A program made the translations under genes and the position numbers. Shown here one piece after another: positions 39,613-42,709 of a stretch of 64,000 nt of DNA. Numbering within the stretch: the first letter of the stretch is position 1; every line of letters starts with the position of its first letter. Origin of the DNA: Bacteroidales bacterium (GTDB lineage: Bacteria; Bacteroidota; Bacteroidia; Bacteroidales; UBA932). The notes beneath the pieces were generated by a model that searched no databases, was not told the origin of the DNA, and saw nothing but the letters and a program-made list of their open reading frames with translations. The stretch covers positions 1-64,000 of the forward strand of contig JAFZXU010000061.1 of the NCBI GenBank assembly GCA_017616655.1, written 5' to 3'.

Positions 39613-39642
39613 CCGTCATGCCCGCGAAGGCGGGCATCTCTC
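39613..39642. repeat. REP-like hairpin with an adjacent half copy
   Basis: CCGTCATGCCCGCGAAGGCGGGCATCTCTC in full. A truncated copy CCGTCATGCCCGC lies at 39590-39602 in the same orientation. Confidence 0.8.
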
Positions 39643-39936: not shown

Positions 39937-39963
39937 CCGTCATGCCCGCGAAGGCGGGCATCT
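39937..39963. repeat. REP-like hairpin overlapping a stop codon
   Basis: CCGTCATGCCCGCGAAGGCGGGCATCT. Its end overlaps the stop codon (39962-39964, minus strand) of the DUF262-HNH gene. A truncated copy lies at 39914-39926. Confidence 0.8.
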
Positions 39964-41134
39964 ATTTGTTTCCTTTGGCTCTGTTGTGGGTCTTGCAGAG
40001 CATCTGGCAGTTGGCGATGGTGGTTTCGCCGCCACGGCTCCAGGCGGTGACGTGGTCTGCGTCCATTTCGGCGAACTTCCAGATGCGGGTGTGGTTGGCG
40101 TCGTGGCCGATGGCGCAATAGGGGCAGTTGGAGACGCCCTCGGCTTCGGCCCTTGAAGTCTGGGCGGCATATACTGCCTTCTTGGTCGGCTCATCGAAGA
40201 CCCTGACATTCAGCAGCCTGGGTTCCTGACAGCCGCCGAGGATATATTCGAATATACCCTTCTTCTCCTTGACATAGAAGTTCTCGTAGAGCTCACGGAC
40301 CTTTGCGGCTACGGCAGCCTGATTATATGCATTGTTGTGGTACTTTTCATAGAGTTCACCCCACTTCAGGCCGCACATCTCCTTCTCGGGATTGATATCG
40401 AAAACCGTTGTAATCCAGTCTATTACGGAGGTGAAGTAGGCCTTCATCTCACTTATATCGTCATCATAACGGTGGGCCGCCATATACTCCTCCGCATGGC
40501 CGCGGCTGACCCAGTCGAGGGCCGCAGCCAGAAAGTCCTGACGCTTGGCGGTGCCGCTTATGAAGCAGCTCCACTTGTTGATATTGGTATTGTTGGAGTT
40601 GGAGAACTCCTCCTTGGCCCTGGTGATGAACGGGCCGGAATAGACGGCGTTCAGCGTCTCCTGCGCATTGAGCGGGATACCCACGATATTGATGGTGCGG
40701 AACCAATCCTTGATCTCCTTTTCCGTGCCCTCGCAGACATAGATCAACAGCTTGGTATTCAAGAATTTCTCCTGCTCGTCATGATTCAGGGCGGTAAAAT
40801 ACCAGGGCTTTCCCTCGGAATCGATCCAGGCGAACTTCTCGGTGACGAAACGGCCAAGCGAGGTGATGCGCTGCTGCCCGTCGAGCACCTCGTAGCGGTC
40901 CTCGCCCACCTTGGAGAAATATATGAGCCCCAGCGGATAGCCGTTGCGCACCGACTGGATTACATCTACCTCCTTCTTGCCGCCGTTTTCGGCATAGAGA
41001 TAGTGACGCTGGAACTCCGGCTGGATGGTGAGCCTGCCGGAAAGCCCGTAGAGCCCCTTGCCTTCATATTCGTTATACTGGAATCCCTTGCAGATATCGC
41101 CAATGGTCCAGTCCTGGTAAAGTGTTGCTATCAT
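39962..41134 (-). CDS. DUF262-HNH nuclease-like protein
   Basis: The 390-residue protein joins two parts. Residues about 1-150 are a DUF262 (ParB/sulfiredoxin-like nucleotide-binding) domain with the signature YEVLDGQQRITSL (81-93), as in GmrSD-type modification-dependent restriction enzymes. The middle is helical. Residues about 336-390 are an HNH endonuclease: CPYC (337-340), DADHV with the catalytic Asp-His (360/361), Asn375 and His383 in CKTHN, plus further cysteines at 376 and 380 that may bind zinc. The start overlaps the stop of the methyltransferase gene by four bases (ATGA), so the two are translated together. I infer a restriction or antiphage role; which DNA it cuts and whether methylation protects or marks it is unknown. 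Confidence 0.82.
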   Translation of the reverse strand: MIATLYQDWTIGDICKGFQYNEYEGKGLYGLSGRLTIQPEFQRHYLYAENGGKKEVDVIQSVRNGYPLGLIYFSKVGEDRYEVLDGQQRITSLGRFVTEKFAWIDSEGKPWYFTALNHDEQEKFLNTKLLIYVCEGTEKEIKDWFRTINIVGIPLNAQETLNAVYSGPFITRAKEEFSNSNNTNINKWSCFISGTAKRQDFLAAALDWVSRGHAEEYMAAHRYDDDISEMKAYFTSVIDWITTVFDINPEKEMCGLKWGELYEKYHNNAYNQAAVAAKVRELYENFYVKEKKGIFEYILGGCQEPRLLNVRVFDEPTKKAVYAAQTSRAEAEGVSNCPYCAIGHDANHTRIWKFAEMDADHVTAWSRGGETTIANCQMLCKTHNRAKGNK

Positions 41135-42273
41135 TGTTGTTGCTTTTTGCGGATGAGAATACGTGCGTATGGTTTTTCTGGTTTGCCGTCGAGCATATAA
41201 TACAACTGCCCGTCACGAAGGCTTTTGTTCAGCGCTTTCAGTTCGCGCGGGAAGGGTTTGAGCCCCAGCTCCTTGCCGGAATCGCCTTCCGCGCACCCAA
41301 CAATCTCAAATTGCTCAGGACAATAACTCCCGGGGAATGTTTTAGGAACCCCCATAATCCCGTCATAATCAGAAGGAATGGAATCTATAAAAGGAACATC
41401 AATGGCATCATAATTAGCATATCGAATATACCCCATTTCCCTGATTTCCCTATGTTTGCTAAATCGCAGGTTATCTTTCATTGTCATTAACCTTAGCGGC
41501 TCATGACGCCTACCGTGGTCCAAATTCGTGTACCAGCACACTCCGGGCACTTTGATGTAATTATCGTCAGGATTATATCCTTTTGAGCGGACAAACTTCT
41601 GATTTGCTTCCAAATAATTGGAATAGGCTGCCTTATACACCATGGATAGGTTGAATCCGACACCAGACCAGATTCTGTTTTCCTTTATAAGGGGAAAAAC
41701 CTCTTTGTAGGTGATGGCATTCATGTTCCCGATGATTAGAAAGGCTTTTCCCCCTTCCATTATCCACGCCAGAAACTCCCGGAATAAGCTGAACGGCGGA
41801 TTCGTCACAATGATATCCGATTCATCCCTCAACTTGCAAACCTCCAGGCTGCGGAAATCGCCGTCGCCTTCGAGATAATGCCACTCGAGGTCATCGATGT
41901 CGATGCGGCCGTTCTGGTTGATGTCGCGCGTCAGCTCGAAGATCTTGCCTTTGATGCGGGTCTTGTCGGCATCGAACCACGGGCTTTCCGTCTCAAACAA
42001 TGTCGGCTCGTAATCCTTATACTTCTTGCTTTCGACGGCGTAGGAGGTGCTGATGAGCCGTTTCAGGCCCAACTTTTCGAAATTCTGGGCAAAGAATCTG
42101 GTGAAATTGCTCCACTCTGGATCGTCGCACGGAAGAAGAACCGTCTTGTCACGGAACGTATCGGGGTTGTACTCCAGGTATGCGTTGACCTCCTTCTGGA
42201 TATCGGCATACTGGGTGTAGAACTCGTCATTCTTGGCAGCCTTCGCGGCGCCAAGATTGCTGTTGTTGGCCAT
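41131..42273 (-). CDS. EcoRI-family adenine-specific DNA methyltransferase
   Basis: The 380-residue protein matches the EcoRI methyltransferase family: KNDEFYTQYADIQKEV near the start, VLLPCDDPEWSNF in the cofactor region, and the catalytic NPPFSLFREFL (158-168), which flips out and methylates adenine at N6. A calcium-loop-like stretch, DINQNGRIDIDD (118-129), precedes GDGDFRS, as I recall for other family members. No EcoRI-type endonuclease is next to it; instead the gene is fused by overlap to the DUF262-HNH gene. Base composition is lower in G+C than the flanks. A structured RNA candidate ending in a terminator lies 60 bases upstream on the same strand. Confidence 0.88.
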   Translation of the reverse strand: MANNSNLGAAKAAKNDEFYTQYADIQKEVNAYLEYNPDTFRDKTVLLPCDDPEWSNFTRFFAQNFEKLGLKRLISTSYAVESKKYKDYEPTLFETESPWFDADKTRIKGKIFELTRDINQNGRIDIDDLEWHYLEGDGDFRSLEVCKLRDESDIIVTNPPFSLFREFLAWIMEGGKAFLIIGNMNAITYKEVFPLIKENRIWSGVGFNLSMVYKAAYSNYLEANQKFVRSKGYNPDDNYIKVPGVCWYTNLDHGRRHEPLRLMTMKDNLRFSKHREIREMGYIRYANYDAIDVPFIDSIPSDYDGIMGVPKTFPGSYCPEQFEIVGCAEGDSGKELGLKPFPRELKALNKSLRDGQLYYMLDGKPEKPYARILIRKKQQQ

Positions 42274-42280
42274 AAGCTGC

Positions 42281-42397
42281 GCTTCTCATGGCACTTGCGA
42301 CTTATCCCCGACAGAGGTTAACCAGGGCACATAAAAAAGGCATGGACTTTTCTAATCCATGCCCGCGGCCCTGAGAAGCCTTGTCAACAGATAAGTC
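42281..42397. other. Paired 8-base complementary words around the methyltransferase leader
   Basis: On the plus strand GCTTCTCA (42281-42288) and GACTTATC (42299-42306) are separated by exactly ten bases. Their complements TGAGAAGC (42372-42379) and GATAAGTC (42390-42397) are also separated by ten bases and in the same order. The first set lies just before the methyltransferase ATG; the second set lies in the 3' strand of the structured RNA. Confidence 0.55.
42333..42363 (-). terminator. Intrinsic terminator upstream of the methyltransferase
   Basis: On the minus strand GGCATGGA and TCCATGCC pair around nine bases and are followed by six T. It lies between the structured RNA and the methyltransferase start, so it either ends an independent RNA or attenuates the methyltransferase message. 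Confidence 0.8.
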
Positions 42398-42530
42398 AAG
42401 TCCACGCCAAAGCGCAGACATTCACTGACCTATCCGGGTTGACTATTTGAAATTTCTCAGGTTTCGGGCAACCGGGTAAATAGCAAATGCTAGTTAAATA
42501 TGTCTTGCAATAACAAAATGGCTGTTCTTG
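42333..42530 (-). ncRNA. Structured small RNA or leader RNA, about 195 nt
   Basis: Downstream of a -7 box on the minus strand, the sequence folds into a long irregular rod. GCCCG (42469-42465) pairs with CGGGC (42365-42361); CCTGAGAA (42461-42454) with TTCTCAGG (42377-42370); GTCAAC (42443-42438) with GTTGAC (42388-42383); GATAGGTCA (42434-42426) with TGACTTATC (42398-42390, one G-U pair); and a small apical helix follows. A terminator completes it. Size and rod shape recall 6S RNA, but I cannot confirm that identity. It could instead be a dedicated leader of the methyltransferase gene. No convincing open reading frame lies within it. Confidence 0.55.
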
Positions 42531-42535
42531 CAGTG

Positions 42536-42543
42536 CAAATATA
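42536..42543 (-). promoter_or_regulatory. -7 box for the structured RNA
   Basis: Minus-strand TATATTTG fits TAnnTTTG. No TTTG was found 19-20 bases upstream. Confidence 0.5.
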
Positions 42544-42572
42544 TGAAAAAGATTCTTTGCCTCGGATATCGC

Positions 42573-42681: not shown

Positions 42682-42709
42682 GAGATGCCCGCCTCCGCTG
42701 GCATGACGG
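42682..42709. repeat. REP-like hairpin followed by a 21-base tandem repeat
   Basis: GAGATGCCCGCCTCCGCTGGCATGACGG is a diverged REP-like unit. Directly after it GAACAGGCGGGC occurs at 42713 and 42734 and, degenerate, at 42755, a period of 21 bases. Confidence 0.7.

What the first reader, a model, noticed from the sequence alone, without database searches (positions are those of the whole stretch)
39962..42543. Nuclease (DUF262-HNH), EcoRI-type methyltransferase and structured RNA in one locus
A methyltransferase with NPPF overlaps by four bases a DUF262-HNH protein with intact DGQQR and HNH residues, and a long, terminator-ended structured RNA lies directly upstream on the same strand. DUF262 proteins of the GmrSD type are modification-dependent nucleases, so pairing one with a DNA methyltransferase and no classical endonuclease is worth attention: either a restriction-modification system with an unusual nuclease or a system that senses loss of methylation. 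Lower G+C and flanking repeats suggest an accessory module.
Basis: partly seen in the sequence, partly recalled or inferred. Interest (0 to 1): 0.72.

Follow-up and report, generated by a model that had tools for sequence, protein, structure and literature searches.

The report
RNA switch fronting a restriction operon
A DNA-methylase gene and a predicted DNA-cutting gene that travel together are preceded by a conserved folded RNA that matches no family in the Rfam catalogue and is also found in front of many other defence and surface genes across Bacteroidia, where it likely acts as a switch for the genes behind it.

Summary
An EcoRI-family methyltransferase overlaps a DUF262-HNH protein by 4 bases; a structured RNA with a terminator-like end lies 59 nt upstream, same strand. 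The protein pair is not unusual: 79 of 80 methyltransferase loci carry the HNH protein, and PADLOC labels it a type II restriction enzyme. Likeliest: a type II restriction-modification (RM) operon with an HNH nuclease.

The RNA is the new part. The window copy and 20 relatives match no Rfam family. A covariance model finds it in 104 of 393 genomes of the order, up to 7 copies each. The next gene faces the same way in 129 of 132 copies, 90 of those 129 at 30-100 nt. A Bacteroidetes -7 box precedes 90 of 130 (9.6 expected). Genes behind include type I, II, IIG and III methyltransferases, other defence genes and surface proteins.

Segment-swap tests support mutually exclusive helices 1:2, 2:3 and 3:terminator strand, plus 3:4 in RM/defence copies; the same-sense control 1:3 is null. 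The RNA is likely an attenuator-like leader switch. Signal and polarity are unknown; nothing was tested for expression.

The parts
39962..41134 (-). DUF262 (GmrSD_N) + HNH protein, 390 aa, predicted type II restriction endonuclease
   Evidence: PADLOC REase_II PDLC03418 E 6.3e-76, residues 20-390 of 390; DGQQR and DH/CxxH[NC] kept in 77 of 77 relatives
41131..42273 (-). EcoRI-family adenine-specific DNA methyltransferase, 380 aa, NPPF motif; overlaps the nuclease gene by 4 bases
   Evidence: PF13651 E 4.4e-125
42274..42332 (-). segment 4: post-terminator leader reaching the methyltransferase start codon, holds GATAAGTCG, complementary to segment 3
   Evidence: 3:4 pairing supported in RM/defence copies only
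42333..42338 (-). T run of the predicted terminator
42339..42364 (-). predicted terminator stem-loop; its 3' strand can alternatively pair with segment 3
42370..42377 (-). 3' strand of outer helix (TTCTCAGG)
   Evidence: compensatory changes with 42454-42461; swap test
42390..42407 (-). segment 3, 3' strand of central hairpin (GCGTGGACTTGACTTATC)
42412..42438 (-). segment 2, 5' strand of central hairpin
42454..42461 (-). 5' strand of outer helix (CCTGAGAA)
42472..42491 (-). segment 1 (AGCATTTGCTATTTACCCGG), alternative partner of segment 2
   Evidence: swap test: native pairing better than swap mean in 86 of 92
42333..42505 (-). conserved RNA core modelled as R1/R2 (173 nt)
42536..42543 (-). 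Bacteroidetes-type -7 promoter box TATATTTG (predicted)
   Evidence: the box consensus TAnnTTTG is recalled, not from a call

Best explanation
The locus is a methyltransferase-nuclease operon, predicted to be a type II restriction-modification system, whose leader is a conserved structured RNA that likely switches transcription between early termination and read-through. Shown by sequence: the pair and its conservation; a leader with a promoter-like box, a terminator-like stem and helices that covary; and relatives of that leader in front of many other genes. Inferred: transcription starts at the box. As RNA polymerase copies the leader, segment 1 pairs with segment 2, and segment 3 then competes for segment 2. 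When 2:3 and the outer helix form, the local terminator forms and the operon is likely off, giving a short RNA of about 200 nt. When 1:2 persists, segment 3 is freed to capture the terminator's 3' strand and, in read-through mRNA, segment 4 next to the start codon, so the operon would be on. What biases the choice (small molecule, protein, elongation factor) is unknown. A leader peptide is unlikely because start-codon ORFs are depleted. The MTase would then mark host DNA and the HNH nuclease would cut unmarked DNA.
For: Pair: 79 of 80 loci, 71 of 79 within 60 nt; matrix correlation of MTase and HNH identities over 76 pairs r 0.58, p 0.001, not corrected for shared ancestry. RNA real: z -5.2; 14 of 47 pairs with changes on both sides in 7 sequences. 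Widespread: 104 of 393 genomes of the order, 39 of 295 of the class, 19 of 40 of the genus with R2, own genome included each time. Leader: next called gene on the same strand in 129 of 132 copies, 90 of these 129 at 30-100 nt; -7 box within 130 nt upstream in 90 of 130, 9.6 expected from base shuffles. Switch, 92 de-duplicated RNAs, native pairing better than swap mean: 2:3 in 92 (p 8e-17), outer helix 91, 1:2 86 (p 1.7e-15); same-sense control 1:3 40 (p 0.19). Segment 3 with the terminator 3' strand: 37 of 41 (p 3.6e-8) where the local terminator is strong, 24 of 28 (p 1.7e-3) where weak; control segment 2 with that strand 18 of 41 and 11 of 28. 3:4: 27 of 33 RM/defence copies (p 1.8e-5), 28 of 56 others (p 0.55); controls 2:4 and outer-5'-strand:4 null. 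ATG ORFs of 6 or more codons in the leader: 17 of 92 against 60.7 in base shuffles.
Against: No expression, termination or ligand data. The terminator pattern alone is not above chance in the region. Polarity is not settled: the stem of segment 3 with the terminator 3' strand also abuts the T run, so it could itself be a terminator, with 2:3 the antiterminator as in trp. 3:4 pairing ends a few nt before the start codon and could block translation. Further pairings outside my model also score: segment-1 window with the outer 3' strand 73 of 92 (p 5.7e-10; the windows overlap the outer helix's extension), segment 1 with 4 in 52 of 77 (p 2.4e-3), outer 3' strand with 4 in 56 of 77 (p 6e-5) (in RM/defence copies 27 and 26 of 33). 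Segment 2 with the 5' terminator strand, the textbook antiterminator, is null (22 of 41). The 5' half alone is only modestly stable (mean z -1.75; below -1.5 in 52 of 92; window -0.5). In a second leader subtype (19 RNAs) 1:2 was not supported (10 of 19, p 0.54), 3:terminator and outer helix only weakly (14 of 19, p 0.024; 12 of 19, p 0.036). Swap tests do not fully remove shared ancestry. Copies before other genes show no 3:4 signal, so one mechanism for all copies is assumed. The variable hairpin before segment 1 was not modelled. No other-phylum control for the model was run.
Confidence: 0.58

Rival explanations
1. The leader is an orphan riboswitch or protein-binding leader whose sensor is the outer helix with its conserved internal loops; one common signal controls RM, other defence and surface genes.
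For: Strongly conserved unpaired stretches around the outer helix (GAAA, AAATTTC, GGGC); many unrelated genes share one leader.
Against: No ligand-linked pathway is visible in the genes; conserved loops alone do not show binding. It refines the best explanation and does not exclude it.
Confidence: 0.35
2. The RNA is a free-standing small RNA or a mobile DNA element that merely sits upstream of these genes.
For: It has its own promoter-like box and terminator-like end; several copies per genome; some copies near contig ends.
Against: 129 of 132 next genes face the same way at short distance; a randomly inserted element would face both ways. 3:4 pairing past the terminator is kept in RM/defence copies. 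One copy searched against plasmids and one against phages gave no match.
Confidence: 0.15
3. trp-like polarity: 1:2 with 3:terminator strand is the terminated state and 2:3 the antiterminator (on).
For: Segment order with a T run directly after the last strand; in 28 de-duplicated copies with a weak local terminator the stem of segment 3 is the supported partner of the last strand (24 of 28) and the local one is not (15 of 28).
Against: In the window copy the local terminator stem is compatible with 2:3 (core fold -61.0 kcal/mol), so 2:3 would not antiterminate there.
Confidence: 0.3
4. The HNH protein is a modification-dependent (GmrSD-like) nuclease, or the pair senses loss of methylation.
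For: DUF262 domain; DUF262 proteins GmrSD, BrxU and SspE react to modified DNA (passages of PMC10952713).
Against: Constant pairing with one MTase family (79 of 80); match to a type II REase model; the C-terminal domain is PF01844, not the DUF1524 of GmrD.
Confidence: 0.15

Closest known systems
EcoRI-family type II RM systems (M.EcoRI family MTase)
   Same: MTase family PF13651; MTase beside a nuclease gene
   Different: Nuclease is DUF262-HNH, not the EcoRI PD-(D/E)XK enzyme (recalled); structured leader in front
GmrSD / BrxU / SspE (DUF262 with DUF1524)
   Same: DUF262 domain with DGQQR
   Different: C-terminal domain is PF01844 HNH; constant MTase partner; no evidence of modification dependence
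trp-type transcription attenuators and riboswitch expression platforms (recalled)
   Same: Competing segments, promoter-proximal terminator-like stem, mutually exclusive helices
   Different: Leader-peptide start codons depleted; one family in front of very diverse genes; signal unknown; extra outer helix and post-terminator segment
C-protein and antisense-RNA control of RM systems (review PMC3874152, passages seen)
   Same: Controls expression of an RM operon
   Different: Here a leader RNA in cis, shared by type I, II, IIG and III systems; the word riboswitch does not occur in that review and the passages seen name no leader attenuator for RM genes

Membership tests
Type II restriction-modification system | DNA MTase of a known family beside a nuclease gene | tested here: met
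Type II restriction-modification system | Pair conserved together in other genomes | tested here: met
   79 of 80 loci; 71 of 79 within 60 nt; the 7 strong HNH hits in 61 genomes (own included) all lie beside an MTase
Type II restriction-modification system | Nuclease cuts the unmethylated site that the MTase protects | not testable with these tools
   needs biochemistry
GmrSD type IV restriction enzyme | DUF262 with DUF1524 (GmrD) domain | tested here: not met
   PF03235 found, but the C-terminus is PF01844 and no DUF1524 family hit at E 1e-3
GmrSD type IV restriction enzyme | Cuts modified DNA | not testable with these tools
   needs biochemistry
Any Rfam 15 RNA family | Match to a covariance model | tested here: not met
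   no match of the window RNA at gathering or E<=1; none on the RNA of 20 further loci at E<=0.5; 6S RF00013 and Bacteroidales-1 RF01693 not found in the genome, 93% complete
Transcription attenuator | Promoter, leader, intrinsic terminator, then gene on the same strand | tested here: met
   (promoter and terminator are predictions; terminator pattern alone not above chance)
Transcription attenuator | Mutually exclusive helices, each under selection | tested here: met
   1:2 not supported in the second subtype
Transcription attenuator | Regulated read-through | not testable with these tools
   needs RNA-seq and reporters
trp-type leader-peptide attenuator | Translated short ORF over segment 1 | tested here: not met
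   ATG ORFs of 6 or more codons in 17 of 92 leaders against 60.7 in base shuffles

The most novel reading that the evidence does not exclude
A new class of leader RNA switch, spread through Bacteroidia, puts restriction-modification systems of every main type, other phage-defence genes and surface adhesins under one shared RNA-sensed signal: an orphan riboswitch-like regulon at the phage and host interface.
Probability: 0.4. Interest if true: 0.87.

Novelty: new variant of a known kind. Interest (0 to 1): 0.74.

Why it matters
How RM systems are kept in check in Bacteroidota is, as far as I recall, little known beyond promoters and DNA inversion. One RNA family in front of type I, II, IIG and III systems and of surface proteins would be a common control layer. 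It is testable at once: copies sit in many genomes, so existing RNA-seq can be searched and reporters built. It also gives a sequence handle, since genes of unknown function behind this leader become candidates for defence or surface roles.

Tried and rejected
Housekeeping RNA next door: no 6S or Bacteroidales-1 match in the genome, no Rfam match. Mobile DNA element: strand bias speaks against it; one copy searched in plasmids and one in phages, no match; an exact 20-base pattern hit one viral contig, where by eye only a partial copy is seen. Flanking repeats as module borders: dispersed REP-like copies. Solved-structure relatives: none for either protein at E 0.01 by sequence. NCBIfam: no hits. 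No structure prediction was run. Literature: eight full-text searches gave capped listings, in which I saw no paper on such a leader; passages only were read of PMC9723704, PMC7366714, PMC8040213, PMC11109978, PMC4619093, PMC10952713 and PMC3874152. Supplements could not be read, so the 64 structured 5' regions of PMC9723704 and the motif lists of PMC8040213 remain unchecked.

Rows dropped or changed: 133 RNA copies (53, 80); 131 passed a length filter and 92 remained after de-duplication; 23 of 92 fell in neither terminator class. The RM group first used (35 RNAs) held L104, L105 and L134, which scans do not support as RM genes; the test was redone with 33 RM/defence RNAs and gave the same result. 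4 of 80 loci had too little upstream DNA. 30 second-subtype leaders were picked by eye (mostly R2 non-hits, a few weak hits), 6 gave no terminator strand by the rule, and 24 became 19. 3 of 109 order-level copies gave no downstream ORF, and for 2 the nearer HTH-like ORF was used. One of the three opposite-strand cases (L119) is an ORF-picking artefact, since one search finds a same-strand ORF. Model R1 was trained on RM leaders and the order-level copies studied are the better-scoring part of a cut listing, so the RM share is biased upward.
Full report
What is there. The window holds, on the minus strand, an EcoRI-family methyltransferase (41131-42273) and a DUF262-HNH protein (39962-41134) that overlap by four bases. 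Pfam and PADLOC hits cover the proteins: PF13651 at 4.4e-125, GmrSD_N at 1.1e-17 with HNH at 8.1e-8, MTase_II at 3.4e-86 and REase_II at 6.3e-76. Upstream, 42274-42560 folds far better than its shuffles (-100.5 kcal/mol, z -5.2, 0 of 200) and holds a terminator-like stem with a T run at 42333-42364; that pattern by itself is not above chance (2 found in 3 kb, 3.3 expected).

The protein pair. 79 of 80 carry the HNH protein behind it, 71 of the 79 within 60 nt; all 77 full-length HNH proteins keep DGQQR and a DH plus CxxH[NC] pattern, 62 of 77 a stricter CPxC...DH pattern. In 61 genomes (own included) the 7 strong HNH matches all stand beside an MTase. MTase and HNH identities correlate between loci (r 0.58, p 0.001, 76 pairs, ancestry not corrected). 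This is what a type II RM system with an HNH nuclease looks like; nothing seen calls for a methylation-loss sensor. The locus looks accessory: 29 other same-genus loci keep the neighbour ychF, and none shows the MTase in the stretch held upstream of it.

The RNA is shared with other systems. A DNA search in 61 genomes found the RNA in 9: our own, seven others and one with only a 37-base match. In three (L094, L097, L098) it stands before a different gene pair, the first gene of which matches type II methyltransferase profiles (L094). Seven copies gave a covariance model; of 47 predicted pairs 14 show changes on both sides. Rfam has no match for the window copy nor for the RNA in 20 other loci.

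How widespread. R1 finds copies in 104 of 393 genomes of the order, 39 of 295 of the class and 23 of 296 of the phylum sample; the 22 other genomes with a hit in that last search are all of our class, but the listing does not show how many genomes of other classes were examined. R2 finds it in 19 of 40 genomes of the genus, with a second, weaker copy in our own genome at C32:15745-15939 (E 4e-4), before a short ORF and a surface-protein-like ORF. In the EcoRI-type loci, 34 of 76 with enough upstream DNA have an R2 match at E<=0.1 in the leader position. The other 42 are also strongly structured there (mean z -5.0, 36 of 42 below -2; random windows -0.8, 12 of 76), by eye mostly a second leader subtype.

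It is a leader. Of 133 copies, 132 have a called next ORF, and 129 of these lie on the same strand, 90 of the 129 at 30-100 nt; in the 105 same-strand order-level copies the median distance is 65 nt. The -7 box TAnnTTTG (consensus recalled) stands within 130 nt upstream of 90 of 130 copies against 9.6 expected, with a peak at 50-70 nt. Among 106 genes behind order-level copies, profiles of type I, II, IIG and III methyltransferases recur, and also ResIII helicases, secretion-tail, LRR and acyltransferase domains. Single scans add C5 methyltransferase, type IV-like enzymes, Snf2 defence helicases, a DarT domain and a dynamin with only a weak defence match. By motif or profile 29 of 109 are RM or other defence genes (L207's lies 457 nt away). 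Several are small HTH-like proteins; their Pfam matches are mostly below cut-off (L206 passes; L121 none).

It looks like a switch. Because segment 1 resembles segment 3, both can pair with segment 2. Each pairing within an RNA was scored against the same segment with partners from other RNAs. In 92 de-duplicated RNAs 2:3 wins in 92, the outer helix in 91, 1:2 in 86; the same-sense control 1:3 in 40. Segment 3 with the terminator's 3' strand wins in 37 of 41 and 24 of 28; segment 2 with that strand is null. Segment 3 with post-terminator segment 4 wins in 27 of 33 RM/defence copies and 28 of 56 others. Not all extra tests were null: segment 1 with the outer 3' strand (73 of 92), segment 1 with 4 (52 of 77) and the outer 3' strand with 4 (56 of 77) also score; the first overlaps the outer helix's extension, the others extend or compete with 3:4. 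In the window copy the 3' half alone folds into the helix of segment 3 with the terminator strand (-30.1), the whole core into 2:3, outer helix and terminator (-61.0). ATG ORFs are depleted (17 of 92 against 60.7), so a leader peptide is unlikely.

What is not settled. Polarity, signal, and whether the copies before surface genes work the same way. The direct antiterminator (segment 2 with the 5' terminator strand) is null (22 of 41), and in the second subtype only 2:3 is clearly supported. No expression data were available, and supplements of the two most relevant papers could not be read.

Verdict. An ordinary RM pair behind an RNA leader family that matched nothing in Rfam and that I saw in no paper of the listings searched. 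The leader, not the pair, deserves follow-up.

Noticed in passing
window 39615-39639, 39939-39963, 42683-42707: REP-like 25-nt palindromic repeat, 22 places in the genome with up to 2 mismatches; two copies also flank the second RNA copy on contig C32.
   Followed up: partly
L220, L231, L234, L241: In this genus another leader form with a longer central hairpin precedes a short ORF and then a lipoprotein- or fimbrillin-like ORF (by eye).
   Followed up: partly
L109, L110, L119, L121, L187, L192, L206, L239: Small HTH-like proteins with a recurring HIGK/S..I start directly behind leader copies; Pfam support mostly below cut-off.
   Followed up: partly
L105:1437-1472: Rfam DUF805b cis-regulatory RNA match (37.6 bits) directly after a leader copy.
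   Followed up: no
L007, L010, L027, L032, L037: An extra ORF lies between MTase and HNH gene: a second EcoRI-type MTase in L007, DUF1016-like ORFs in L010 and L027 (family name recalled).
   Followed up: partly
window MTase residues about 211-240: Very variable stretch of the MTase (about 15% identity to the window across loci), a candidate for target recognition.
   Followed up: no
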